A stretch of DNA of 64,000 bases, taken from Gavia stellata. Taxonomy: Eukaryota > Chordata > Aves > Gaviiformes > Gaviidae. The stretch spans positions 13,856,880 to 13,920,879 of the forward strand of contig NC_082603.1 in the NCBI RefSeq assembly GCF_030936135.1. Reading direction: 5' to 3'. The notes beneath the pieces were generated by a model, which saw only the letters and a program-made list of their open reading frames with translations, was not told the origin of the DNA and searched no databases. The position numbers were made by a program, and so were the translations under genes. The first letter of the stretch is position 1. The number at the start of each line of letters is the position of its first letter. Below, in pieces: positions 10,455 through 63,355 of this stretch.

Positions 10455-10840
10455 ATGATATTTACTTGTGATGTAAGCAAATTTCTTTTCTCTCATATGA
10501 ATTTACCATGTCTCTTTCAAAATACTCACCACAGCACATTCAGCAGGTCCACCTGCAGGACAGCATGTCAGGGCAAAGCCACTTGGGGCACATCCCGCAG
10601 TACCTGCACAAAGCAGGCAGGGCAGGGCTGGCCAGGGAAGCAGCCACAGCCACCAGCACAGCCCAGTATGGCCAGGCAGGTCATTGGTGAGGTGGCCAGG
10701 TGCAGCCAAGGCAGGCAACTGAGCTGGCTGGTTGGGGTGAGGCTCACTGAGGTGCGGGGCCAGCCAGGGGTGTGGCTGGGACGCAGCTCAGGCAGGGAGT
10801 GAGCTTCAGGGCATCTCCACCTGCTCCTGCGTGGAGGTCC
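10455..10840. other. GC-rich unassigned segment 5' of the CR1 copy
   Basis: From about 10,530 the base composition changes abruptly from AT-rich to GC-rich, with many CAGG/GGCAGG-like words, and stays so up to the CR1 body. Open frames run through it on both strands, but the peptides are low-complexity and match nothing I recognise. It may be another old repeat into which, or beside which, the CR1 landed, or a 5' extension of the CR1 that is too diverged to read. I cannot decide. Confidence 0.35.
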
Positions 10841-12238
10841 TCCTGCAAGGATGAGGAAAAGGCTGAGGTACTTAATGCCTTCTTTGCCTCAGTCTTTAAC
10901 AGCCAGACCAGGTATCCTCAGGCTATTCAACTCCCTGAGCTGGAAGACAAGGTTGAAGAGCAAAATAAACTCCCCGTGATCCAGGAGGAAGCAGTTAATG
11001 ACCTGCTCTGCCACCTGGACACTCAGAAGTCCATGGGGCCTGATGGCATCCACCCAAGGGTGCTGAGGGAGCTGGCGGAGGAGCTTGCCAAGCTGCTGTC
11101 CATCATTTGTCAACAGTCCTGGTTAACAGGGGAGGTCCCAGACGACTGGAGGCTTTCCAACGTGACGCCTATCTACATAAAGGGCCGGAAGGAGGATCCG
11201 GGGAACTACAGGCCTGTCAGCCTGACCTCGGTGGCAGGGAAGATCATGGAGAGGCTCATCTTGAGGGTGCTCACAGGGCACGTGCAGGACAACCAAGGGA
11301 TCAGGCCCAGCCAGCACGGGTTCATGAAGGGCAGGTCCTGCTTGACCAACCTGATCTCCTTCTACGACCAGGTGACCTGCCTAATGGATGAGAGAAAGGC
11401 TGTGGATGTTGTCTGCCTGGACTTTAGTAAAGCCTTCGACACTGTCTCCCACAGTATTCTCCTGGAGAAGCTGCCGAATCGTGGCTTAGACAGGTGCACT
11501 CTTCGCTGGGTAGAAAACCGAGCCCAGAGAGTCGTGGTGAATGGAGTCAAATCCAGTTGGCAGCCGGTCACAAGTGGAGTCCCCCAGGGCTCAGTTTTGG
11601 GGACGGTCTTGTTTAATATATTTATCAATGATCTGGATGAGGGGATGGAGTGCACCCTCAGCAAGTTTGCAGACGACACCAAGTTGGGCGGGAGTGTTGA
11701 TCTGCTCAAGGGTAGGAAGGCTCTGCAGAGGGATCTGGGCAGGCTGGATCGATGGGCTGAGGCCAATTGTACGCAGTTCAACAAGGCCAAGTACTCTGCA
11801 TTGAGGTGCTGGAGAGTGTCCAGAGAAGGGCAATGAAGCTGGTGAGGTGCAGCTGAGGGAACTGGGGTTGTTCAGTCTGGAGAAGAGGAGGCTGAGGGGA
11901 GACCTCATCGCTCTCTACAATTACCTGAAAGGGGGTTGCAGAGAGGTGGGTGTTGGCCTCTTCTCCCAAGTGACTAGCGACAGGACAAGAAGAAACGGCC
12001 TCAAGTTGCGCCAGGGGAGGTTTAGGCTGGATATTAGGAAAAATCTCTTTACTAAGAGAGTGGTGAAACACTGGAACAGGCTATCCATGGAAGCGGTGGA
12101 GTCACCCTCACTGGAGGTGTTCAAGGAACGTGTGGATGTGGCATTGTGGGACATGGTTTAATGGGCATGGTGGTGTTGGGTTGATGGTTGGACTTGATGA
12201 TCTTACAGGTCCTTTCCAACCGTAGTGATTCTCTGTGT
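10840..12238 (+). mobile_element. CR1 LINE, 5'-truncated and internally deleted, with ORF2 reverse transcriptase remnant
   Basis: CR1 is the dominant non-LTR retrotransposon of birds; its ORF2 carries endonuclease and reverse transcriptase. Here the frame ending at 11,836 keeps RT motifs: [13 protein letters not shown] near its start, [46 protein letters not shown] and the catalytic box SKFADDTKL (about 11,661-11,690). The endonuclease part is missing, so the copy is 5'-truncated, as most are. After [14 protein letters not shown] the frame breaks: a stretch of the ORF2 C-terminal part is deleted and the text resumes at about 11,847 in another frame with [19 protein letters not shown] and ends near 12,161. 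The element ends with the usual CR1 tail, GGTTGGACTTGATGATCTTA, then CCTTTCCAACC and a degenerate ATTCTCTG terminal repeat near 12,230. It cannot encode an active protein. The 5' edge is approximate. Confidence 0.93.
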
Positions 12239-26640: not shown

Positions 26641-31672
<5,032 letters not shown>

Positions 31673-36427: not shown

Positions 36428-43756
<7,329 letters not shown>

Positions 43757-43800: not shown

Positions 43801-46270
43801 GTTCCTGCAAGAGGGTAAAGTACACATTACAAAATACATATTTAATAAAAAATAAATATGATGGCAGAGATGGGCATTTAATTTTACTTGATTGTCGTTT
43901 TGTTTGAGAATTGGATTCTATCTAAGCTATATCAATCCCCCATACTAACGGTAACTTTGTTTTTCTGAAGTTAAAATTCAGACACTATCTAATACCAGCT
44001 GTGTCTAGTGTGCAAAAGTTATATTTTTATTAGTATAAAGACAAAAACAACCCCAAAAAGTAAAGGAGTACTTATACAGACTGACTGAAATGAACATTTC
44101 ATTTCTCATTTTAATGTATAATACTTTACATTCCTATTTATCCTTGTGAGGCATCTTGTTTTCAAAAATCTGTGTTACTATGACTTATGCACATTTAGAC
44201 AAGGCCTTGGAGAAACAGCATGTTTCTTACCGTGAGTTGCCACGAAACCCCAGATATTTTGGAGGCCTAACATATGTGAGTCTGTCATTCGTGATATGCA
44301 TGATATCTATCATTCAACGAACAGCCCTAATCTTGGAAGATCTCTCAGATACAGAAGTGACTATACCAACTCAAAACCAGAAACGCTAAATGTTTCATCT
44401 GAGTACACCTGTACAATTTGCATGGAGATACTCTTCTCCCAGAGAACACAGCGCAATGGCATGCAGAGGTTAGAAGTGCTGTGGAGCTCCATAACCAACA
44501 AGCCTCCTTCTCAGTGCCCTGGTACAGAGTTCTGCAAATGCACTGAAGGAGCTTTCCAGAGGAGGAAAACCAGCTGCTAGGTTAAGAGCTATACTTCCCA
44601 ATACATATCATATTTGTATTTACTTATAAAACACAGATGACAAGCCTATTAAAATTGTCTCTCCTTTTTCTTATCTAAAGAGAAATACAACTTACAAACA
44701 AACCAGAAGTTAAACAACTATCAAGGTTTACATTATGCTATTTAGGATCTCATTTTGCACTCTTCATGTTTAGAAGTTGATTTAGAAGTTGATTTAGAAA
44801 GTCTGAGATACAAAGAAGTCCTACAAGGAGATCTTTTGCAAACAAAAGGCTGAACTACTACTTCCCTTAAATAACAAAACACAGAATCTTGTTACTTTCC
44901 TCTAAGTATCTATTCTTTGTAAAAAGCTGTCTTAACACAGAAACAACAGGGCAATAAGGTGATTCCTGGGTGCTGTCCTAGAGGACACCAAACACTTCAG
45001 TGAAGGTTTAAACATGAATACAAGGGCCTTCAGGTTTGCTACATGAAAGAAACCTGCACCCTTTCCTGATTTAATACACATTTAGGAATGCACTGCTGAA
45101 AACTCCAACCTGCTATGATACAGATAAAAAAAAGTTTATATAAAAATCTATGATTTCTACAAAATGACCCTCATTTTTATTTCAAGGAAAGGATGATCAA
45201 TATGTCTCAGTCAGTGAAGCTGCACTCTTTGGAGCAAATTCAAGCACAAAATATGCTAAAGTGTAGAACGTGCCTTCCAGAGCCTGTTGCTATCACCTGT
45301 CACCATACATCACAGGCAGCCAGATTTATTTAGAATGAATAATTTGGTAAATTTAGCTTGTTTTTCTGCTTGTGAACGAAGTAATTTTAATGAAATTATC
45401 TACTTGAAGATCTTTGGTAGAGTATACAAATAAATTTCAGCCGTAAGCAGTTGCTCTGTGCTTCCATTTTCATGAAAGAATGCTTCTTTGCCCTGATAGG
45501 AAGAACATACATTAACAGAAAAGGAGCTAAGAAAGTTCAATCTTCTCTGATGAGAGAAGCCATTTATCAAACTGGCAATTTTACTTACAGCAGTAAGCAC
45601 ACAAAGCAGTAAATTACACAAAGCAGTAAGAATAATATGTTTTGACCCAACCAGCTCCAAGGCCCAGTGCTTGAAGAGAAGACTCAGTGTAGATTTTCAT
45701 TTCTTTGAAATAGGTTTACAGCTGCTCCGGCTTTAGTACAAGCAATGATAAGAGAATGGAGACGTTGGAATCCCCAACACTCTGAAGGATCTAGCTTCAA
45801 AATGCTTTTGAAGCTTTGAAAAAAGTTAGAGGCCTGTATTCCTCTATGGAAGAAAAGAGAGCACACCTGATTGCAATTCAAAGAAGATGGGAAAGAATTG
45901 TTTCTGAAGAACGCTACTGCTGTCTTGGACAACCTGAGAACTCAGGGCAGCTTGTCCTCCGGTGGGTTAAAGTCTGTGGCATGAAACTCAGCTGCTATCT
46001 CCAAAATACCAGCAACAATATTCAAATTTGCGGGCCTGATGAAGCTTCAGATGTTAAAGGCTGTTACAGGAAAGTAGTTTCCATGTGAACTGCTAGTCAC
46101 TCCCCACAGAACTTCCCTCAGCAGCCGCACGTTTCATACAGACGAAGCAACTCGGCTTCGGCAGCTCCTCTAGAGACAGAGCACTGCCCCTTACACAGCT
46201 CTCGTCCGGAGCAGCTCTACCGACCACAAATCCTGCCGGGCCTCTTCAGCACATACCGCAAGCAAGAAGC
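43801..46270. other. Five-prime flank of amylase copy B, no supported gene
   Basis: Open frames on the plus strand at 44,296-44,580 and 45,816-46,088 match no family and lack splice or promoter context. A short tandem repeat of AGAAGTTGATTT lies near 44,770-44,800. The stretch leads into the CpG island. Confidence 0.5.
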
Positions 46271-46515
46271 AGAACGTAATACGTACACTTCGGGGCTAGC
46301 CTGTGCCATTTCCAGCGGACCCCAGCCGCACCGCCCCGCCCGCCGCCAGCCGCGCGCAGCCGGGCCAGCAGGGCCGGGCCGGAGGCCAGCCCCTTCCGCT
46401 GGGGCGGGGCGGGGCGGGGCGGGGCGGGGCGGGGCGGCGCGGAGGGCCCCCAGCGCTGCCCTGCGGCGCCCCCGCCGGCAGCGCCGAGCGCGGCCCCGCG
46501 CCCGCCCTGCCAGGC
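46271..46515. promoter_or_regulatory. CpG island, candidate promoter
   Basis: This is the only strongly GC-rich, CpG-dense interval of the window, with many CCGCC/GCGC words and seven tandem GGGGC units (46,401-46,435) that make overlapping Sp1/KLF sites. It lies about 2.6 kb upstream of the amylase copy B start and past the end of RNPC3. Such islands normally mark promoters. Candidate transcripts are an upstream non-coding first exon of amylase (a GCG|GTATGTG donor lies at 46,267 on the minus strand) or an unannotated RNA on either strand. The direction cannot be read from the sequence. Confidence 0.6.
46401..46435 (+). repeat. (GGGGC)7 tandem repeat
   Basis: Seven exact GGGGC units, followed by GGCGC. 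Seven runs of four G spaced by a single C can form a G-quadruplex and also create repeated GC-box sites. Confidence 0.97.
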
Positions 46516-49500
46516 AGCTGCCTTACTTTAAGAGAAAGTGGTGTGTGGCAAAATAAGCTGGCTTAGCTGAAAGCGTTATATTACACGGGATTATGCCGAT
46601 TTAAGATAAAACTACATTCCGGAACACGTTTGTTCTCGAGATTTGAGAAAAGCGTATATGCAGAGATGTTTCCTCACTTCTTTTTTTTTCCTTTTGAAGT
46701 ATTTTTGTCTTTGAGTATAGCACCACCTGGCTGTTACCCTACTTCACTGCTTCGAAAATTTACCGAGTTGGCCTTTTATGCAATGTTGAAGTAGTTTGGT
46801 TCTGTACTTGTTAACTCAACATGGGTGTAAGGACATATCGCATATTTCCTCTATTATATTCCTTTTTATGTGCAATAAACTGAGTCACAAAACTTTGTAA
46901 AGTAGCTCCATCCAGATACAGACTGAAAATTTGGTAGCATAAGGAAGGGTTCCGCACCTTTGAAGGCTACAGTGGATTAGCAACATTAAAGTAGAAAATT
47001 CTAGTTACAGTGGCTTTGCCATACGAAGTAACAAATGCAATTCATCACTATCAGAATAATGTTTCTTTCCCTGGGAATGGTCAAAACCACAACTAGGGTA
47101 AATATTTGTCTGTATATAACAAAAGGATCTCATGCCAGAAGCTGCTCGCTAGGCTGGAGTAAGAGACTCGGGTAGGAGTTGCAGGACTCAAGTGTTTGTC
47201 CTACAACAAGAACAGTAGCAACGTAAGCTACTTAAGGAAACCAAGGTATTTACGATGGCAAATGTGTTCTCTTCAGTTTGTATCAAGTTAGGAAGATACA
47301 TTTAAGGAATAAACGGGAAGCAGTTGGAAACGTCCTAGAAAATAATAAAGGAAAAGTGATTCTCAGTTTGCATTAGGTCCTCTCTTAGCTGTCAGATTCC
47401 AAAGATATGAAGGGATAACAAAGATGCAAATGATCTAACATGACATGTCTTAGTGAATTTTCCAAGTTACTATTGTCGTAAGGATAATCGAGCTAGAAAC
47501 CGTTCATTTCTGAATGCATGTTAACTCCACTTTGCAGATTATATTATTTTTACCTTCTCAAACCAAAGTTTCTTTTCACTACCACATAGTGAAGTCCCCA
47601 AAATTCAAAGTTTTTGAGGAAAAAAACGCTCAAAATACAGGAACTGAAGATGAGCCTTATATATCAAACTCACACTGAGGACACTGGAGAAACATGCACA
47701 CTTTTTAAAAATCCATCTCTTTAGAATTAAAAGCACATTAGAATGACCTTCTGAATTTGGCTTTCAAAGAAAATTCTGACAAGGCACACAACTCACATTT
47801 ATATATAGAAAATAAATCTAATTTAGTTTCTGCTATCACAGGATCTTTGCTATATCAGGGAGTCAATTTATGCAAAAGCACTAGAGTAAAATTCATGATT
47901 GTTAGATTACCTGAGTCAGCCTCACCTTGAAAATTATAGCGATACAAGTATATTCAAAAGTTTAATTAAATAAGAAATGTTGCTGTGTATACGTACCATT
48001 AGCTAATGAAGAAAAATTGTGAAGTAAGCCTGCATTCACTGCTTATGTGCAATCTTGGAAGTCAGCCCTAATGACTTGTTAAAAAAAAATAGAGGTCATT
48101 TGACCTGAAATATCAGATCAAACATTCTGAGGGAAAGGAAAAAAAACCAAAAACTAACAAGCAGAAATGGGTGTACAAAAACCCGGTCGATTCAAGGGAA
48201 TTAAAGCTTTGCCTTCTGACTTTAAAAAAGTTCTCTCAACTGGACTGCAAAAGTTTCTGTGACAGATTATCAGTATAGGATGTTGGGGAGTATGTTTTAT
48301 TTGTTCTTTAATAATATAACCCCACCAAGAACACAGCTTCGCTTTATTCATAATGGAATGGCCACACAACACTCAAAAATTTCTTTTAAGTCACTTTCTC
48401 TCTTCTAAGCATCATAAACCCTTCAAAAGTTCTCACAAAACTTCCTCTTTCAGTGTATTTTTCCTGGCCTATTACTCCAAATACAGGTAAGAAACTAACC
48501 AACAACTACACAGTCCACATGGGAATGCAGCAAATAAGCTAAGAAGAATTCCAGTAAAAGCATTTTAAAGTAATCTGCTAAGCCAGTGCATATTGAAAAA
48601 ACAGCAGATACACTTATTTTGGTCCAGCAATCAATACTAGTGATTTAGGCTGTTTGCAGGTGGAATGCTGGCAAAACAAAAAAGTTTTTACACCAGCCTG
48701 TTACCACACCATCAACTATGAATTAATATTTTAGGGAATAATTTTCTCCTTAAATCCACTGGACTCTCTTGCCAAGTAAATGTCATTGCACCATTTGCCA
48801 CGTGGTTTTAGAAAGTTACTCTAATCTTCCTAGTATGTAACAAATCTTACTATGTGACCTCCACAGCATTGGTTTTTATTAAACAGAGTTCAACAGAGCA
48901 AGGGCCACACCTATGCTGGTTTAACACTGTTTTAACTGCTACTCTTGTTTTAATGACTTCAGTCTCAACAGTGATATTTTTCAAGATATGGATGAACAAT
49001 GAAAGTTAATTACTGAGGAAAAAACAGTGCCTAATTTCACAGCACAATTTCATGCCAGTGCACTACTCGTCCTGCTTAGTCTCCAAGACAAAAAAAAAGA
49101 TTTACATTAAAATGAGATTATCCTTAGATTTTCTTATCTTTTTACCCTGAAACACTAACAGCTAAACATCACACTCAAGGAGGTGCATATGAATATATAC
49201 TCTGAATCATCTAGAACATGCTGCACAGTTACAGTTGGACTGTTCACTTTTTCAAAACAAAGAAAGTGTCTTCCTCCTCCTTCCCACTCCCAAACCCCAC
49301 AACAAAAGTCGAAATGAAGAGAGAACGGCAAGAGAGAAAGGGAATAATTTATTAGATTTCACAGGCAAACCAACATATATTTATCATATAAGTCTTGTGA
49401 CAGTTTAAAGATATTTGGAATCTTTAAGATGAGAAAATTTATACTCTGCCTTAAATACTTTAGAAACACTACTACGCACAGTTCAAGAGTTGCGATGATT

Positions 49501-50430: not shown

Positions 50431-50455
50431 AAAAGGATACAACAAGAAAGGATAC
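50431..50455 (-). promoter_or_regulatory. USSE-like element: two tandem U12-type 5' splice-site motifs, RNPC3 3' region
   Basis: On the gene strand GTATCCTTTC (50,455-50,446) is followed 15 nt later by GTATCCTTTT (50,440-50,431). Both carry the full U12-type 5' splice-site core (R)TATCCTTT. A tandem pair of such motifs is the U11-snRNP-binding splicing enhancer (USSE) known from the genes for the U11-48K and U11/U12-65K proteins, where bound U11 activates an upstream 3' splice site and lowers productive mRNA. Here a strong 3' splice site lies 44 nt upstream, as the model needs. The element lies 2.9 kb past the RNPC3 stop codon, with no other gene between. Confidence 0.82.
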
Positions 50456-50499
50456 ACTCTGCATGACAGTATTACTGCAGTATTTACGCAGGAATGTTT

Positions 50500-50520
50500 C
50501 TAAAGAAGAACAGCAGAATG
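50500..50520 (-). promoter_or_regulatory. Candidate alternative 3' splice site of RNPC3 upstream of the USSE
   Basis: On the gene strand CATTCTGCTGTTCTTCTTTAG is a pyrimidine-rich acceptor ending in TAG at 50,500; an exon would begin at 50,499. It is the natural target of the USSE and the natural partner of the donor at 53,381. Confidence 0.65.
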
Positions 50521-53375: not shown

Positions 53376-53388
53376 CCATACCTTGTGC
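53376..53388 (-). promoter_or_regulatory. 5' splice site in the RNPC3 3' UTR
   Basis: GCACAAG|GTATGG on the gene strand, cut between 53,382 and 53,381, 13 nt after the stop codon. It is a good U2-type donor. Joined to the acceptor at 50,499 it defines a 2,882-nt 3' UTR intron and a long-3'-UTR isoform. Confidence 0.65.
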
Positions 53389-53394
53389 TGTGTT

Positions 53395-56300
53395 CTACTT
53401 TTTTCTTTTCCCTTCATTGGCATCCTGTTTTGGTCTAGCTGAACGAGCAAATTGCTGAGATTCTGTTAAGGACTACAAGTGTCAATGATAAACAGAAGCC
53501 AATCAAGAAGCAAAAAAGTATTATTTCAGCAAAAGATAGTTTAAAAAGTGGCCTTTATCGGTGAATCAGTTCTTCTACAGTATTAAACATTATAACAATA
53601 GTGTCTTAGACAAAGATTAGGACCTCACTGATCTGCAGTACTAAAAATTTTAAGAGAGCATGTCCTAGAGTTTACAATGCTAAGTAAATAAGGAGGACAA
53701 GCTGGGAATGGGTTAGGTGCAAACACATTAACTACAGCAGGATAAATGCTTCATATTTACAATCCTCCACTCCAGCATGTTAATTCTAGAACTTTGATGT
53801 CTCAGTAGGTATTTAGGAAGAGAAAAGCTAAATGGAACAGAGGTTGGAGTGAACGAAGAGTACAAAGAAAAAGTATGAAACATTTAAGTGAAAAATAAGA
53901 AAGGACTTCTAGACAAAAAACAGGGCAATGCAATCAAAAAGTGTAGAAATCCCAACGTGTTACACAGGCCCAAAAAGTAACTGACAGTTCCAGCTGGAGA
54001 AGCAGTCTAAATATAGACCACTGACCCTGACAGGAACATTCCTTTGCGTTCTTAATTCTGTAAACATGGGCTTAACCAAGTCAAAAAGCCTACTTAAATA
54101 CAATGGTCATACAAGCTAAATTATCGTTTGTATTGTGTTTGCAGGATCACAGAGATAAGACCAGAAAAGACAGTATCATTGTCTTAAATAAAGCACATTT
54201 ACTTTCCTATTTCAGAAGAGGTGCCTCTATATATTTTTTAGTTATCCTAAAATTAACAATAGTACATTATGCTATGCTGCCTGGTTTTCTTAAGGTATTT
54301 CCTCTTTCCACAGATTTCTAGTAAGTAGAACACCATGACAGCAAAACTAGAGATTGACAGGTTACAAAGAATATAATGTAAATGTTTGAAGAAAAAAAAG
54401 ATACAACCACCATGGGTTTTTCAAATAAGACGTATCCATTTGCTTCTTTTAAAGCTTTAGCAGCTGCTTTTTCATTAGGAAGTCCAATGAAAGCCTGTCC
54501 CTTCATACGGCCTTCTTTCATCAAACGTATATCAAACCTAGAGGCAAAATTGAGAACTGGGAATTATTCATGTTTAACCACACTTTCGTATTTCACAGTA
54601 CAAATACAATTCTCATGCTTCAAGTTGGAGAAATAGCAGAAATGGGAGCAGAGTCTACAAGCAAGAATTATGTCATTGGAGACGATTTTGCCTGGGGGAA
54701 CCATTTAGTAAATAGCGGCGTTAGACTGCAGGATGGCAAACTGGTGTGCAACTGTAGTAAATATGACATATGCAAAATGATCAGATACACACAATCATCT
54801 ACATTGTTCGTTCTGTGTCACTCAGCCAATAAACAGTAAATTTTGTAATGAAAATATAAGGGCAGAATAGTAGGGTCTTCAAGGCACTGTTCAAAAAAAT
54901 TCTATTTCTGCACTTGTGATAAATGAAGATTTTCAGATTAAATATTTTTTCTTTATGCAGAAGCATAAAGAAAAAAGTAAAGATGACTAGTTTTTAAATC
55001 ACAATTTTACCAGTATTAGAGAAGTTAACATAAAATGCTTAATTTTAACCAAATACCAAGTTAACTTACATATTTCGTTCTACTTCTGACTGGAAGTCAA
55101 CATATCTTCCAAAAATGAACTTGAGATCCTGAAATTAAAGGGTAGGTATAAGAAGAAAGCCGATAAAAAGCCCTTTTGATAAATATTTACTTTGCTTGTT
55201 TACCTACCTTTTCTTGAACTTGTTTAGCTAAATTCTTCACATATATCCTGCAATTTGGATCACCTGGCTCATAGTTTTTGAAAACAGAAAATTTTTCCAT
55301 TTCTTGATGACAGAAAAAGAGACAATATTTTAGCTCGTTTACTTACTTTGTGGTTTTTCTCAGTATAAATTAACTAAATTCAATATATGAACAATTAATA
55401 AAGAAAATACTTAAACTATTTGTTGCAACAAATCAAAGAACTATTATTAGATAGTTTATTCTCACAGTTATACCTTCTCTAGAAAGTCTGTTTTTTTCTA
55501 GATCCCTTCTAGAAATAAATTCTGATGGTATTTCATCATCCTCCTCTTCAGTTTCCATTTTATCATTCGAGCTAGGAGCTGGGAAAATCCTTCCAAAGCC
55601 TGTATTATTGATTTCTTCTGTGGCTACATAAAGGTCAACACATTATAATAAAGTGGTTTGTATGTTTATTCACAAGAGGAACAACAGCAAGCAAAAAAGT
55701 ATACTCCTTTCAGTAATGTTTTAATATAGTAGACTTTGTAAAGCCATTTGAACACATCCTTAAAGAAATGTGTCTTAATCCCTGGTTTGACAAACACACC
55801 TGCTCTATATGGTCCTATAAAATCAACTGTACTACAAATAAAAGCCATGGCACATGCCAGTTAAGGTAAAACTAGCCTTGTTGTTCAAGCCTGTATCCAT
55901 TTAAATGGTTTATCTAATTTTCATTCAAAGAAACTGTATATTATTGTAAAGTACCAAGAAACACGGACTGACCATAACCCTATAAGAAACCACCACACCT
56001 CATTGCTATTATCGCCCAGCATTTTTATAGCAGATAATCAGTGCATCACAGAGAAGGAGTTGGCAATCACTTGAATGCTGCTCTCTAAGAGCTGGAAAAG
56101 GAAAATCTGAAATTAGCCTGTTATATTCAATTACACTATGTAATACTGAGAATGCACTTGTAACATATTTGCCAAAAACACCGTAACATTTAAAAGGGAG
56201 TGCAATTCACCATAAACCCACAGATCACATAGAAGAGGAAGAGACCTTTAGATCCTTTACGTACCAAAGCACAGAGTTCTGTGCTTTAACATGGGAAAAG

Positions 56301-59300
56301 CAGCAAATGCAAACAAGATGCAAGTTGATGTTCTTAAACCCTGATGTATACTATTTATGAAAGCTCCAATACAAAAGAAAAGAAAAGAATTCCCTGGCCT
56401 AAATTTCAGCAGCCTTCTACACAGTGAAACCACATGAATTTAATATTAACTATATTTGAAGTACAAATTCTCTTACCATTTTTTTCTTCTTTTTCTGAGT
56501 TTATCTGAAGAACAGCTGGGATGTCAGTAGTAATATGGAACTCAATTTTTTTATGACCTACGTGCTGTGGCTGCTCAAAGACATCTGAAGGTGACAGTGT
56601 AGGGTGCAAATTACTGTTTAAAACAACAACATGTTAATTAGAGATTCAGACACTGATGAACGCATAGTCAAATACAAGATTTCTTCCAGATAGATTTTAT
56701 GCTGTTGTTTACCACAAATACATGAGTTCTCCATTTCATAAATTTCATCCAGTACAGTTCAAGTTGATTAAAACACTGCAAATACAGTAGATATGGCTGG
56801 CAGTGAAAGCAAAAACAAGAATTACATACCACATTACAGTATAGACAGGCACTTATGAAAAACTTTATCAGTAACTTAAATACGAAAAATAAATGGCCTT
56901 GCTGCTGCTCTCACATAGCGTATAAAATATACCAAATTTTCAAAAAATATAGCAAATCACTTGGAGGAAGAAGAATGCTATTAGTAAAGATGCATTCACA
57001 ATTGATCATCACTACATAGAAATACTACGCTGGTTATCTACTGTGCCATAGTACTGCAGTTTCAAAAACCAAACTTATTTTAAACCAAATCAGTTTTTAG
57101 TCTTTCAATATCATCCTTTTTTTTTATTTTAAATTTTTATTGTAACAAGTATCCCAAACAATAAATCCAGATTGCTTCTGTCAGAGCTGTGATACAAAAT
57201 CGTTTCTCTTTTTTATGAAAAAGGGATTTTTATTAGTTTTATAGCAAGAGAAACACAGAGCTTGAACCAGGCACACTTTACAGATTAAGGTTGTTGAGCA
57301 GACTTGAGTTCAAATTATATGAAAATTTGGATCTTTAGAGCAATAAAACCAAGCATGAGGATAAGGAAGACCAACTCCACTACCAAATTTACATATCAGT
57401 GAAGAATGCTTGTTTTAGAACAGCAACACTAAAGCAAACGTGATACAGAGAACGTAATTTAATAAAAGGAATTTCTGAGAAAGTGCAAAAACCACAGAAA
57501 TAATACAAACCTGTGGGGAGTACACACGGGAACATTCAATAAGTCTTTAATTCTTTGCTTTTTTCTAACACCACGCTTCTTTGTGTTTATTGGTCTTTTA
57601 GGCTGAAGGGTTGCTAATTCCATCAACTTGGTCATTCTATTTTAAACAAAATTTAAAAAAGAACCAAAGTGGTTTATCATTTATTTGAAAATACTCATTT
57701 GGAAAACCCTTCCCCCTTCCTCAAAGCCCCTGAAATACAACTTTTCAGCATACGGTTGTAAATCTAGCTACCTTAAGACAGAAACTACATTAATAAACTA
57801 TTAACACATAGAAAATCGATATACACAGAGCACTTAAGTGACCGATCAAAATCATAATGAGTTCAGTGACGCCCCTTCCTTCCCAAACCATGCACCTAAT
57901 TAGGACACTGAAGCTGTAGAAATGCTAAGAAGCCCCAAGCTGAACCTTTTTTTTATAATACTATTTCCACGCAACAGGAGTGCCTTTTTCCAAATGCATG
58001 TATTTTTCCGAATATAGCACAGGGACTTTCTGATTTACTTTTCAGTTTAAATAGCAAATAAAGAAAATTGCTTCTTCGTTTAGTATTAGTTTAAAGGTTA
58101 AAAAAACCCCAGCTATGATGTAATTCAGTCCCAAAACTGCAAGAGAATCCTCAGCACACACAACCTCCATTATTATTACTCCTAGCAATACACACTGATG
58201 TACAAAGAACATTTTGGAAGTCAGAGTGTACATATGATTCAGGCTGAGTAGTTTACTCAGTAAAGATGTGGAAAAATGAAGACTCCAGAAAACAAACTAA
58301 TTATTGCTTCCTTATATCTGCACTCTCTCTTCATTCTGAGTTTTTATTTTTTGGACATGAGAACACATGATAATTTGCATACCATTTGGCCATTTTCCCT
58401 TTTACCGTGATTCAAAACAGCACTGTCCTTCAGTTTTTAAGTCACTCTGGAGTTTCCTTAAGCATCTGGAAAGATTATCTATATACTACAAACATTAACA
58501 GATTCCACCATTTGCTGAACAAAAAAGCTAGAAAAGTAAAACCACCACTCTAAAAGAGCCCAAAAGCTTGCACACGACTGTAAAATGTATACCTCTCCTT
58601 TTCCTCCTCATTATCACTTTCATATTCTGATTCATCTCCACTAGATAGTGGCTCTTCTTCCTCTTCAGGCAAAGGAGGCTCTTCAGGAGGCAGAGGTGGG
58701 ATTGGGGGAGGTGGCACAGGCACTGGTAAATACTCTTCATACTAATTATAGGAAAAAGTTTAAAAAAGTAACTAAATGTTTTAAGAAAAAAAAAAATCGC
58801 AAATCTTGTTTTCCTTTACATAACAAAAACAGTCAAAGCAGTAAACTAGAAGATGACAAGCATTTTATTAAAGTATGTTTATAGGGATCTAGATGCTAGT
58901 TCACTAAACTACTTTACTAAAGAAAACTTTCCACAAGAAAAAAAAAATTGCTGCCTTCTGAAGGGTAACAATGAATGGTTTCATTCTTTTAATTTGAGGA
59001 GTTAAAAAATAGCAACCATGGCCCTGTTGTTGTGGTGTTTTAGGTTCCCTCAACCCTGTCTTTTTCAAAAAACACCCTGGAGACAGAGCAAGTTAAATCC
59101 AAACGCACTGTACAATCTCATTAACAATCTGAATCAAAACTCCAAAGAAACACACGGATCAAAGAACTTAACACATCTTTGTAAGGCAATTGGTTAATGG
59201 TATTCTTTATTTCCTGTACCTGTAACATGATGCTATAACCTCCTTTTTTTATACTGAACAGTTTGAAATATTCCAGTGCTACTGTCATACATGTATATTT

Positions 59301-62300
59301 CTTTGTTCTAAACATAGTTAAAAAGATTTCTTCAGAAGACTAACATGCATATCTTACCCAATGAAATGCAGCAGTATTTGCTCTCCTCTAGAGATTTCTC
59401 CAACTTTTAGAAATTTGAACTTAGATCTCCTACCATGTTGCTAACATTTTAAATTGTGAATTCATTTTACAGTACTTAAAACATATATTAAAAAAGTTAC
59501 CATGGGAGGGCGAGCAGTAATTGGTCCAAAAGGTGGAGGAAGATTCATTTTATTCATCAGATGAAGTACCTGAAATGATTCAAGATAAGATTTCCTTTAA
59601 ATAAATAAATAAAAAACTAAATTAAAATAGTTCCTTGCTAGGTATCATAGTCAATAACTTCTGGCAGGTGTAAATCAGCATAGTTTTAGTGAAGACACGA
59701 CTACCTCAGTTATTAAACGATGTGAAAGCCTGCACTTGAGATCCAACATTAATGGTAAATATAAGCAACACCATAAAAAGGCTAATCAAAAAAAGCAAAG
59801 CAAGTCACATCTAATTAGGACGATCGTGTCCAGTTAAGTTTTCAGTGTCAATGAAGTAAGTAACTTCTGGTCAATGAAATCTTACTATCTCAATATAGTA
59901 AAAAATTAACATTGGTTAACACTGTCACAGGAAAACTAACTTAATATTTACTATGACAAAAATTATTTCTGTGGCTAATTAAAAGAGGAAAAAAGAGATG
60001 TTTTTATTTTTGTACTTTCTTTTTTTGCCATTTTTTACTTACCTGGACATAAAATTTGGGCACGCTTGCCAAGGCATTTGCTATATTTGCTAGAATTGTA
60101 CTTGAAGGTGGTGGATACAAATATTTGAGGCAAGAATTGATGGGAAAGGTGAGGCTGAGGAACAAAGATTAAAAACAAGACATCTTAGTACTATTGCCAC
60201 ATGACTGATAAAAATTAATGATCACTTGAGGTTTAACTATTCATTACATGTGAAGTATCACTGAAATATTATTATTTCCCCTAGAACAGTTTTGGGCCAC
60301 TTACATTATGTCTGTAACATCAGGAAACCGTCCCCTAATGCATGACAGACTTACTGGGCTTGAGCACAATGAAAGTACCAACACATCCAGAAAGCCTAAA
60401 AGCGCACAGAAACAATCAAGATGTCCAAAACCAAAAGCAGAGTAGAGGATGCTGTACAAACATCATAAACTCAATGCTGGATTTATTAGCTCAAAAAGAA
60501 ATTTATTCTTCATGTATGCAAAAATGCAAATGGGGGGAAAAAGAACAAGAAACCTCTGGAAAAACAAAAGTCAACAGTATTCTGCTATTAACACTGGGAC
60601 AACCTATCCAGTCCTCAAACTCTTCCTGAGAAAGCAATGCATAGTGCTAGGCTATTATGCAATCCACAGATCCATGGTTCACAGCACCAGTCACTACTCA
60701 ACTGTGAGGGTTCTAAACTTAAAGAACTAAAATTTCATCTTTATGACAATTCCTACAGCTATGCATGTAGGACAGTAGCATACTATAAAACAAAACAATG
60801 CAGTATGCTGCATTCCCTCTTGTTCAACAGTGCATAACACTTATTCTAAAATAAACAGTAACAGAATAAAATAATTAAGACAAAAAAACCACTAACCCAT
60901 GGTTGGGTGCAATTCCATTCTCTATTTTAACACAGCTTGGTTCTTTCTTCTCTTCTTCTTTCACTGCTTCTTCTGAACTGAAAATTAATTTAGCATTAAT
61001 TAAAACAGGGCAAAATTTAAGTGCCTTACATAATATATGAACTATGTTTAATCTCATCTATTAAAAAAATATAAGAACTAGATTAGTATAGCATTTTTAA
61101 TCTTTTATCAATGGCATTACTACAGCCATTATTAATACTTAATAATTAATACATGTGGATAATTATAGTAGCCAGACTTCTAAAATAAATATTTATGCAG
61201 ATTTAAGTAAGTCTCCCTATATTCAAACACTTCTGACTTAAATCTAGTCACAGGAAAAGAACTAAAATTATTTCATGTTACTCTCTGTTCAGAGACTGTA
61301 TAAAAGCAAAGGTGTTAAATTATTTATTTGTTCATATTCAGAGAGTGGAATAAATAACTTAAAACCTCTATAGTTGATTTTAATTAAGCGCTATCACATT
61401 GCTTCTATCACTTAGTTACATATGACACAAGTAAACTTGAAAGCTTAACTATGCGGTTTATTTTTTTAATTAAGTACTTGACAGACAATTGAAACCCAAA
61501 CCATCACAGTTCTTGATCACACTAGCATTAGGATTCATTGATTTTTTTTTTTTACTTTTAAATATTACATATTCTTTAATTATATGAAGAGAGACTCGGA
61601 CAGTTTTATGTTTGTTCTGCTCGTGCAGGCTAGATACCTGCAAATGCTGAAGTCAGTGGCTGTAATAGTCTTACACAGTTACGCAGCTCTCAATTCTGCC
61701 TGACTCTTGACTAAATTAGAAAGAAACATCAGGAAAGCACTGCATGCTCTGTTTAACAGCAAAAGAAAATTATAATCCTGACACAAGGAAAAGTAGAAGA
61801 GTGTTTTTTAAACACAGGGAACCTGTGCAACACAGAGGTCAGCTTACACAGACTGAAGTCATGCTCTGTAAATGAGAACAAACAGGACCATCTGCTGATT
61901 AAAGATACTTATAGCTATAGGAATAAGGATAGGAATTATTTCATGATGATACTGAATGAAACAATACTAATGGGAGGAATGCAGTCACTTATCTATAGAT
62001 CTGAATCTGCCTGTTAACACTTCTAAATGGTTACAATTTATCCTTTGACTTAATAGTACTACAAAAGTATTGTGAATACAAAATTTCCTTTCCTTGACCA
62101 CAAACACAGAAACTAAATTATTACACACATACCTTTTACACTTCTCTGAGACAGAAGGCTGGCTAAGTACCTGCACACTATCTTGCTCCTTTGCAAATTC
62201 AACCACTAAGGTGTGACCTAAAAGTTTCAGCTGATGAAGTCTTGACAAAGCCTTCAAAAAATTATAATGGAGAAAAGAAAGAAAGGGAAGAGGAAAAGCA

Positions 62301-63355
62301 TCAGAATTATATCAAAGTATAACAGTTTTTCTTTGGTTGGTAAACTAGCCATAGGATACCATCCCAACTGCTTTAAGCTAAGTCTGTGGCACTACAGACT
62401 CAGGTAGTTCCGCACGGTTCCTGCCTTCACAGCCCTGCTTTTAGCGAGACTGCTCCCTTAACAATGATACTTACTACGCAGCCTAGTAAAGCTCTGATTT
62501 CAAGTAACCAACCTCTTGCTCATGAACTAAAAACATGCTGAAGTCCACTAGTAATAGCTGGGAATTTTAAAATCAAGGTTCTTAACAGCAACACAAGGAA
62601 GCTCCAGCATTCTGCAAGTCCAGACCCTGACAGGCTGCTAACAATTGACACAAAGTAACCTAAGTTCACCACTGTTCACCTCACATAGCCTTTGTAACTT
62701 TTTTGAGTAGTACTTTAGAACATGGCCTAAAAAAAATAAAAGCCACGCCAAAAAAACACAACAGGGCATAAGAAGGAAATTCAGGACACAGGCTTTTTAC
62801 CAGATCCATATTTAAAAAGCGTTATTAGTATTACCTTTTTGGCATCCACGTCCCCCATTAACATGGTAGTTTTCTTTTTCTTATCAAAGTTGGGCATTCA
62901 AGACAGTCTTGAATTGTATACATCACTATATCTGAATTTTATGGCAAATACGCAATTATGCAGGAGACAAGTAGATTATGTTTGGTTTAGTTTATATATA
63001 AATGCACACACCGCCTAGACAAGGCCCTGAACAGTCTCGACTCATGTAAGTTTGCCGTACTCTAAGTGCCAGGTTGGATCAGATGACTTCCACAAGCCCT
63101 TTCCAACCCACCTTTCTTATGACTCTACAGAAGTGTTTGTTTTATCAAATCCTTCAAGCAGCCCCTGAAACAGAATTCTAATATTACATTGTTCTGTATT
63201 TTTTCCCCAACACTGAGTACTAGACAATGTGTAAAACATTTTCGAGCACAACTGGCAATTCAGAAAAGTACTTTGCTAAAACATTCGATAAGAAACTCAA
63301 TACAAACCTTCACAGCTGCATTTTCACTGGGAAAGGTAGCAAAAGCAGTATGTTT
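53395..63355 (-). CDS. RNPC3: RNA-binding region-containing protein 3 (U11/U12 snRNP 65K), partial: 13 coding exons, N-terminus beyond the window
   Basis: Component of the U11/U12 di-snRNP of the minor spliceosome; the C-terminal RRM binds U12 snRNA and the N-terminal part binds the U11-59K protein. Exons in transcript order: 63308-63355, 62133-62251, 60897-60977, 60043-60154, 59501-59569, 58593-58741, 57511-57636, 56477-56613, 55474-55623, 55208-55302, 55070-55128, 54405-54537, 53395-53454. Phases join throughout: 1,338 nt, 445 residues plus stop. The human protein is about 517 aa, so some 70 residues are missing before 64,000. Visible: RNP1 of RRM1 (KHTAFATF), LGHTLVVEFAKEQD, the conserved linker NGIAPNHGLTFP, a proline run then an acidic run (PPPPIPPLPPEEPP, EEEEE), a basic segment (KKRGVRKKQRIKDLL), and the second RRM with RNP2 RIYVKNL and RNP1 GRMKGQAFIGL. 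The last exon encodes QFARSARPK and a lysine-rich end. The last intron looks U12-type. Confidence 0.96.
53455..54404 (-). other. RNPC3 last coding intron, U12-type by its signals
   Basis: The donor is GTT|GTATCTTTTT, one base off the U12-type consensus GTATCCTTT. The acceptor end reads GTCCTTAACAGAATCTCAG: it carries the U12 branch-site core TCCTTAAC about 11 nt before the AG and no pyrimidine tract between them, as minor-class introns do. The other RNPC3 donors I read are ordinary U2-type. Failure to remove this intron would replace the last 19 residues by a 28-residue hydrophobic tail ending at 54,318. Confidence 0.8.
54945..54976. repeat. AT-rich hairpin, 14-bp perfect arms and 4-nt loop, RNPC3 intron
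   Basis: TTTTTTCTTTATGC (54,945-54,958) and GCATAAAGAAAAAA (54,963-54,976) are exact reverse complements around AGAA. It lies in the intron between the exons at 55,070 and 54,537. The arms are low in complexity. Confidence 0.8.
62835..62897 (-). other. Exon-like segment in RNPC3 intron, 21 codons in phase with the next exon
   Basis: On the gene strand an ATG at 62,897 opens 21 codons (MPNFDKKKKTTMLMGD then VDAKK) ending AAAAAG|GTAATA, a fair donor. Its phase 0 end joins in frame to the exon at 62,133-62,251. A stop lies just before the ATG and no matching acceptor stands out, so if real it would be an alternative first exon that omits the start of RRM1. The peptide matches no part of human RNPC3 that I know; chance or a degenerate repeat are likely alternatives. 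Confidence 0.25.
63014..63129 (+). mobile_element. CR1 LINE 3'-end fragment
   Basis: CTAGACAAGGCCCTGAACAG followed by GGTTGGATCAGATGACTTCC and CCCTTTCCAACCC is the typical 3' end of CR1 elements. Only about 115 bases are left. It lies antisense within an RNPC3 intron and is older than the copy at 10.8 kb, judging by its changes. Confidence 0.85.

What the first reader, a model, noticed from the sequence alone, without database searches (positions are those of the whole stretch)
50431..50520. USSE-like tandem U12 5' splice-site motifs behind RNPC3, with a 3' splice site 44 nt upstream
Two exact GTATCCTTT cores 15 nt apart on the RNPC3 strand, preceded by the acceptor CATTCTGCTGTTCTTCTTTAG. Known biology: U11 snRNP binds such tandem motifs in RNPC3 and SNRNP48 transcripts and activates an upstream 3' splice site, so that minor-spliceosome proteins limit their own supply. 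Seen: the motifs, spacing and strand. Inferred: that this bird copy works the same way. It is non-coding, distant from the stop codon, and easily missed by annotation.
Basis: partly seen in the sequence, partly recalled or inferred. Interest (0 to 1): 0.82.

Follow-up and report, generated by a model that had tools for sequence, protein, structure and literature searches.

The report
RNPC3 self-limiting splicing switch (USSE)
Behind the gene for a protein of the rare "minor" splicing machine lies a paired docking site for that machine which, by analogy with the published human and mouse case, lets the cell cut back that protein's supply; it is a good copy of a known switch, with a minor-type intron directly in front of it.

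Summary
Observation confirmed. Two exact GTATCCTTT motifs (15-nt register) lie on the RNPC3 strand at 50455-50447 and 50440-50432; an acceptor opens an exon at 50499, 44 nt before the first. The donor at 53381 lies 13 nt behind the RNPC3 stop codon, so the isoform would be a long-3'UTR mRNA as published for human and mouse (Verbeeren 2017). Of 99 tandem sites examined in the 1.32-Gb genome, this alone combines two perfect motifs with a good acceptor 20-55 nt upstream. The genome's U11 gene begins AAAAAGGGC, complementary to the motifs, but pairing energy alone is not exceptional. Best reading: the RNPC3 USSE, a known element in another species. Splicing, nuclear retention and conservation could not be tested.

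The parts
50447..50455 (-). USSE motif 1, GTATCCTTT (U12-type 5' splice-site consensus)
50432..50440 (-). USSE motif 2, GTATCCTTT, 15 nt downstream in register
50500..50520 (-). [quoted passage not shown] first exon base 50499; ranks 9th of 516 AGs in the 8-kb 3' region (tied with one other)
   Evidence: weights improvised
53376..53384 (-). U2-type 5' splice site AAG|GTATGG; first intron base 53381
53382..53454 (-). last coding exon of RNPC3 (73 nt): 19 codons QFARSARPKQDANEGKRKK, stop TAG 53397-53395, then 13 nt of 3'UTR
53455..54404 (-). U12-type intron 12 (950 nt): donor GTATCTTTT, branch site GTCCTTAAC with adenosine 12 nt before the exon, poor U2 donor
53382..63355 (-). RNPC3 (U11/U12-65K) coding exons located, from an exon inside RRM1 (63355-63308) to the stop; the 12 exons from 62251 on were joined to 429 aa. 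Exons before 63355 were not located
48127..48151 (-). candidate default distal acceptor for the short-3'UTR isoform (TTTGGTTTTTTTTCCTTTCCCTCAG, first exon base 48126); best score of 516 AGs
   Evidence: assignment inferred
47990..47996 (-). candidate conserved suboptimal U1 site, GTACGTA, 130 nt behind the 48126 acceptor
   Evidence: inferred from the compensatory U1 mutation named in PMC5473595
36431..43756 (-). amylase gene copy nearest to RNPC3, same strand (possible target of read-through)
26644..31672 (-). second amylase gene copy, same strand

Best explanation
[quoted passage not shown] SHOWN (sequence): two perfect U12-type 5' splice-site motifs 44 nt behind a moderate U2-type acceptor, in the 3' non-coding end of RNPC3, with the donor 13 nt behind the stop codon; one copy of the region found in the genome; U11 5' end complementary. 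INFERRED from the human and mouse work: U11/U12 di-snRNPs dock on the motifs and, across the 44-nt space, recruit the major spliceosome to the 50500 acceptor without the motifs being used as donors. Transcripts spliced 53381-50499 then carry the USSE in a long 3'UTR, are held in the nucleus or run on towards the amylase genes, and make little protein. When U11/U12 is scarce, a strong distal acceptor (candidate 48126) is used and exportable mRNA is made. Additional proposal: because the intron just upstream is itself U12-type, finishing the coding sequence also needs minor splicing, so the 3' end may read minor-spliceosome activity twice in opposite directions (too little: intron 12 retained; too much: USSE isoform).
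For: Motifs, strand and spacing. RNPC3 identity: exon-by-exon tblastn, best PDB sequence matches 3egn and 5obn, RNA-binding protein 40, at 9.6e-73 and 5.4e-72, RRM_1. Genome-wide specificity: of 99 tandem sites, 6 have two perfect motifs, and of these only RNPC3 has an acceptor score of 5 or more 20-55 nt upstream; the other 5 score 2.2 or less or have no AG. One match of the region in the genome. U11 gene with AAAAAGGGC 5' end. The 50500 acceptor is weaker (5.15) than the distal 48126 (10.9, first of 516), as an enhancer-dependent choice would need. The published element has the same make-up and gene. Intron 12 U12-type: U12 donor 10.2 against at most 2.6 in the 12 other introns scored, branch score 12.9 against at most 5.7, U2 donor score -1.0, the lowest of 13.
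Against: No RNA reads and no other vertebrate sequence could be examined. U11 pairing energy of the motifs (-4.9 and -6.1 kcal/mol in 12-nt windows) is reached by 18% and 10% of all such windows on that strand, so pairing alone does not single them out. Tandem sites are not enriched in the genome (44 against 97 control; 101 against 160), so motif pairs alone mean little. Three tandem sites with imperfect motifs have better acceptor scores than RNPC3. SNRNP48 in this genome shows no comparable element. Behind the candidate U1 site down to 45500 the only listed poly(A) signal is ATTAAA at 47966, 30 nt away and not the roughly 100 bp published. Splice-site weights were recalled or improvised.
Confidence: 0.9

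Rival explanations
1. The motifs are a real U12-type donor: 50499-50456 is a short exon spliced by the minor spliceosome to a U12-type acceptor downstream.
For: Perfect U12 5' splice sites; two moderate U12-type branch sites with acceptors downstream, first exon bases about 50158 (score 9.9) and 48067 (10.0).
Against: Such combinations are near background: 31 of 8882 AGs in the window reach 9.9, so about 1.5 are expected among the 430 AGs examined, and 4 AGs sharing 2 branch sites were seen. In human the tandem sites are stated not to be used for splicing. A donor does not need a tandem copy.
Confidence: 0.06
2. Chance motif pair in an AT-rich non-coding stretch, without function.
For: Tandem pairs occur tens of times in the genome and are not enriched over control.
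Against: Expected number in the sense strand of this intron about 5e-5 (arithmetic); it lies in one of the two genes known to carry such an element, on the right strand and at a short distance behind an acceptor.
Confidence: 0.02
3. The element is a relic: the motifs persist, but regulation in this lineage works through the U12-type intron 12 or has been lost, as SNRNP48 shows no USSE here.
For: No comparable tandem motif in SNRNP48; intron 12 is U12-type.
Against: Both RNPC3 motifs are letter-perfect and the acceptor is intact, unlikely for a relic.
Confidence: 0.04

Closest known systems
USSE of human and mouse RNPC3 (U11/U12-65K); Verbeeren 2017, PMC5473595 (abstract, sections 4, 6, 8, 13, 16, 25 and passages seen)
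   Same: Gene, 3' non-coding place, tandem U12-type 5' splice sites, upstream U2-type 3' splice site, amylase genes downstream on the same strand.
   Different: Different species. Amylase is closer (first located amylase exon about 4.2 kb behind the candidate U1 site; the paper gives about 15 kb to human AMY2B) and present twice. Isoforms, retention and the U1 and poly(A) sites are not shown here.
USSE of SNRNP48 (U11-48K); known to me from PMC5473595 and PMC8329584 passages
   Same: Same enhancer type and protein complex.
   Different: There the published effect is mainly a poison exon with NMD; in this genome SNRNP48 shows no comparable tandem motif.
Minor intron-containing genes; RNPC3 is called one in PMC6865273 (passage seen)
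   Same: Intron 12 has U12-type donor, branch site and spacing here.
   Different: The passage does not say which intron, and does not link it to the USSE next door.
SRSF10 autoregulated minor intron (PMC7244321, start of abstract and passages seen)
   Same: Minor-spliceosome activity read out by choice of splicing in a splicing-factor gene.
   Different: There competing major and minor donors in one exon; here a minor intron and a USSE in consecutive introns.

Membership tests
USSE | Tandem copies of the U12-type 5' splice-site consensus | tested here: met
   Two exact GTATCCTTT, 15-nt register
USSE | Lies in non-coding sequence of RNPC3 or SNRNP48, sense strand | tested here: met
   Behind the RNPC3 stop, RNPC3 strand
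USSE | U2-type 3' splice site a short, constrained distance upstream | tested here: met
   44 nt. That the distance is constrained: PMC8329584 passage; the range 25-50 nt is recalled from the Niemela 2015 abstract, which is not held
USSE | Bound by U11 snRNP through base pairing | tested here: inconclusive
   Own U11 5' end AAAAAGGGC is complementary, but the energy is not exceptional; binding not testable
USSE | Motifs themselves not used as donors | tested here: inconclusive
   Downstream U12-type acceptors only near background level; needs RNA
USSE | Activates the upstream 3' splice site; long-3'UTR isoform kept in the nucleus | not testable with these tools
   No RNA data
USSE | Conserved between species | not testable with these tools
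   No other vertebrate genome held; exact 23-mer absent from viral and prokaryote contigs, which says nothing about vertebrates
RNPC3 read-through module (conserved suboptimal U1 site before the poly(A) signal, amylase downstream) | Non-consensus U1 site in the shared terminal exon, about 100 bp before the poly(A) signal | tested here: inconclusive
   GTACGTA at 47996, 130 nt behind the best acceptor; one further sense-strand copy at 46286; only ATTAAA 30 nt behind it
RNPC3 read-through module (conserved suboptimal U1 site before the poly(A) signal, amylase downstream) | Amylase gene downstream, same strand | tested here: met
   Two copies, 43756-36431 and 31672-26644
U12-type intron (intron 12) | U12 5' splice site, U12 branch site, short branch-to-acceptor distance | tested here: met
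   GTATCTTTT (one letter off GTATCCTTT), GTCCTTAAC, 12 nt; stands out from the 12 other introns scored
U12-type intron (intron 12) | Removed by the minor spliceosome | not testable with these tools
   Needs RNA after minor-spliceosome inhibition

The most novel reading that the evidence does not exclude
The RNPC3 3' end is a two-way sensor built from consecutive introns: the U12-type intron 12 makes the last coding exon (the 19-residue C-terminal tail behind RRM2) depend on minor splicing, while the USSE 2.9 kb further on diverts the transcript when U11/U12 is plentiful. The 73-nt exon between them is defined by a minor 3' splice site and a major 5' splice site, so the two choices may compete or couple directly. 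In this lineage RNPC3 may carry the loop alone, since SNRNP48 shows no comparable USSE.
Probability: 0.25. Interest if true: 0.55.

Novelty: new member of a known kind. Interest (0 to 1): 0.33.

Why it matters
It places a known feedback switch of the minor spliceosome precisely in a further genome, in non-coding sequence where gene prediction can easily miss it. It also sharpens two testable questions: does RNPC3 read minor-splicing activity twice, through its own U12-type intron and through the USSE, and can a vertebrate keep the RNPC3 arm while the SNRNP48 arm is gone?

Tried and rejected
Tried without result: tandem pair in viral and prokaryote contigs and the region in phages, which cannot be expected to hold vertebrate relatives; Rfam over the window, no match; Pfam alpha-amylase in the own genome listed five stretches on C2 and missed both amylase genes that tblastn found in the window, so that search can miss short exons. 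The C9 tandem site (L015) lies near a stretch that I read by eye as attractin-like (recalled, not searched), not SNRNP48. Single-strand folding of the 89-nt stretch gave z -2.06 (6 of 200 shuffles fold as well), not pursued. Other USSE candidates (e.g. L043: motif score 27.5, acceptor 6.85) were not tied to a gene. Rejected as evidence: motif enrichment (fewer than control) and U11 pairing energy. The paper search on RNPC3, AMY2A, chicken and birds: the 20 papers listed of 34 held no RNPC3.

Limits of method: splice-site and branch weights were recalled or improvised by me, not trained; they rank sites but are not MaxEnt scores. The 99 sites are the distinct ones left after dropping duplicates and sites too near a locus end, from the loci then held except L024-L027; one search counts 101 for its pattern and its printed list is marked as cut. 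Intron scoring covers 13 introns of RNPC3; its first exons were not located. The SNRNP48 scan asks for two motifs each above 2 bits in a 9-30 nt register; its first 53 residues were not located. The single match rests on a search that skips simple repeats.

Full report
OBSERVATION. On the minus strand the window reads ...CATTCTGCTGTTCTTCTTTAG|AAACATTCC...CAGAGT GTATCCTTT CTTGTT GTATCCTTT TTTTGTG... The motifs are 50455-50447 and 50440-50432, the exon would begin at 50499. They are the only two exact GTATCCTTT in the window. Two such 9-mers somewhere in 64 kb is not striking (14 of 100 shuffles); two GTATCCTT within 30 nt is (0 of 100 shuffles). The genome holds 44 such pairs in 1.32 Gb, fewer than the reversed control's 97. 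So tandem pairs are not a favoured class, but one falling on the sense strand of this 2.9-kb intron by chance has an expectation of about 5e-5 (my arithmetic).

GENE. The last coding exon is 53454-53382, codes 19 residues ending ...GKRKK, has its TAG at 53397-53395, and its donor AAG|GTATGG opens at 53381. The stop is 13 nt before the junction, so by the usual 50-nt rule (recalled) the long isoform would not be an NMD target, in line with the published nuclear retention. In the spliced long isoform the first motif is only 57 nt behind the stop.

SPECIFICITY. I scored 99 distinct tandem TATCCTTT(4-10)TATCCTT sites of this genome for motif quality and for an acceptor 20-55 nt upstream (loci held then except L024-L027, chiefly). 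Six have two perfect GTATCCTTT; RNPC3 is the only one of these six with an acceptor score of 5 or more (the others 2.2, -2.05, -2.2, -2.95, none). Three sites with weaker motifs have better acceptors (6.85, 5.8, 5.6). The 201-bp region around the element has one match in the genome, itself. The own U11 gene (Rfam RF00548, 110.7 bits, the one match listed) begins AAAAAGGGCTTCTG, complementary to CCUUU. Against: pairing energy is ordinary.

CHOICE OF ACCEPTORS. Among 516 AGs of the 8-kb 3' region the 50499 acceptor ranks ninth, tied with one other (5.15); the strongest is at 48126 (10.9) (weights improvised). A weaker proximal acceptor that needs help and a strong distal default is what the published model needs. 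130 nt behind 48126, at 47996, stands GTACGTA. The paper's compensatory U1 (T4G,CT8/9AG; section 8) would, if numbered from the second U1 nucleotide (my assumption; the U1 5' end is recalled), pair with CCT|GTACGTA; so 47996 may be the U1 site that the paper reports as conserved in all Tetrapoda examined, birds included. The lead is weak: the three letters before the GT differ (ATG here), a second sense-strand GTACGTA is at 46286, and the only AATAAA or ATTAAA listed behind it down to 45500 is ATTAAA at 47966, nearer than the roughly 100 bp reported. Two amylase genes follow on the same strand, as amylase genes do in human and mouse.

BEYOND THE FINDING: A U12-TYPE INTRON NEXT DOOR. Scoring 13 introns of the gene, intron 12 (54404-53455) stands apart: U12 donor GTATCTTTT 10.2 (next 2.6), branch GTCCTTAAC 12.9 (next 5.7) with its adenosine 12 nt before the exon, and the worst U2 donor (-1.0). 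In the whole window 4 of 8882 AGs, its own among them, have a branch score that high, and 10 positions on that strand a donor score that high. Retention would replace the last 19 residues with 28 others before a stop. RNPC3 is called a minor-intron gene in PMC6865273 (passage, citing Olthof 2019); the passages I saw do not say which intron. In my searches and in the passages opened I saw no statement that joins this intron with the USSE; supplements could not be opened, and Verbeeren 2010, Niemela 2015 and Turunen 2013 were not seen (the latter two not held; the first not looked up, known from citations).

SNRNP48. The U11-48K gene was found at C3:79738038-79729073, minus strand. Its best tandem pair on the gene strand scores 13.0, against 33.6 for RNPC3, with an acceptor-like AG only 3 nt upstream. 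Either this lineage has lost or reshaped that USSE, or my motif is too narrow for it; one genome cannot tell.

LITERATURE. PMC5473595: abstract, sections 4, 6, 8, 13, 16, 25 and passages. PMC3584512, PMC6865273, PMC8329584, PMC8034651, PMC6717393, PMC10639083, PMC12332006, PMC7244321, PMC8199999, PMC8871696, PMC11039992: passages and the start of the abstract in listings. Key statements: tandem repeat of U12-type 5' splice sites not used for splicing but activating an upstream U2-type 3' splice site; long-3'UTR isoform retained in the nucleus; distance under evolutionary pressure; USSE most conserved in vertebrates; RNPC3 expression negatively correlated with minor splicing in 12 of 14 tumour cohorts, which the authors tie to this feedback as a possible explanation.

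VERDICT. It is a further copy of a known element, of modest interest; the adjacent U12-type intron and the missing SNRNP48 element are the parts worth a follow-up.

Noticed in passing
54404-53455 (minus strand): Intron 12 of RNPC3 is U12-type by donor, branch site and branch-to-acceptor distance.
   Followed up: yes
C3:79738038-79729073 of the own genome (L024-L026): SNRNP48 of the same genome shows no tandem U12 5' splice-site element comparable to the RNPC3 one (best pair 13.0 against 33.6).
   Followed up: partly
43756-36431 and 31672-26644: Two amylase genes in tandem downstream of RNPC3, same strand; a 1.8-kb block (27136-28975 and 37101-38943) is 99.6% identical, suggesting recent duplication or gene conversion.
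   Followed up: partly
about 46100-46560: G+C-rich stretch with GCCCC repeats between RNPC3 and the first amylase gene; looks like a CpG island or promoter, no gene assigned.
   Followed up: no
10751-12161 (plus strand): Reverse-transcriptase-like open frames, recalled as a CR1-type LINE.
   Followed up: no
L043 (C2:39220777-39220796) and L109 (C20:3400291-3400314): Other tandem U12 5' splice-site pairs with a good acceptor 28 and 33 nt upstream; gene context unknown, L109 looks like a short tandem repeat.
   Followed up: no
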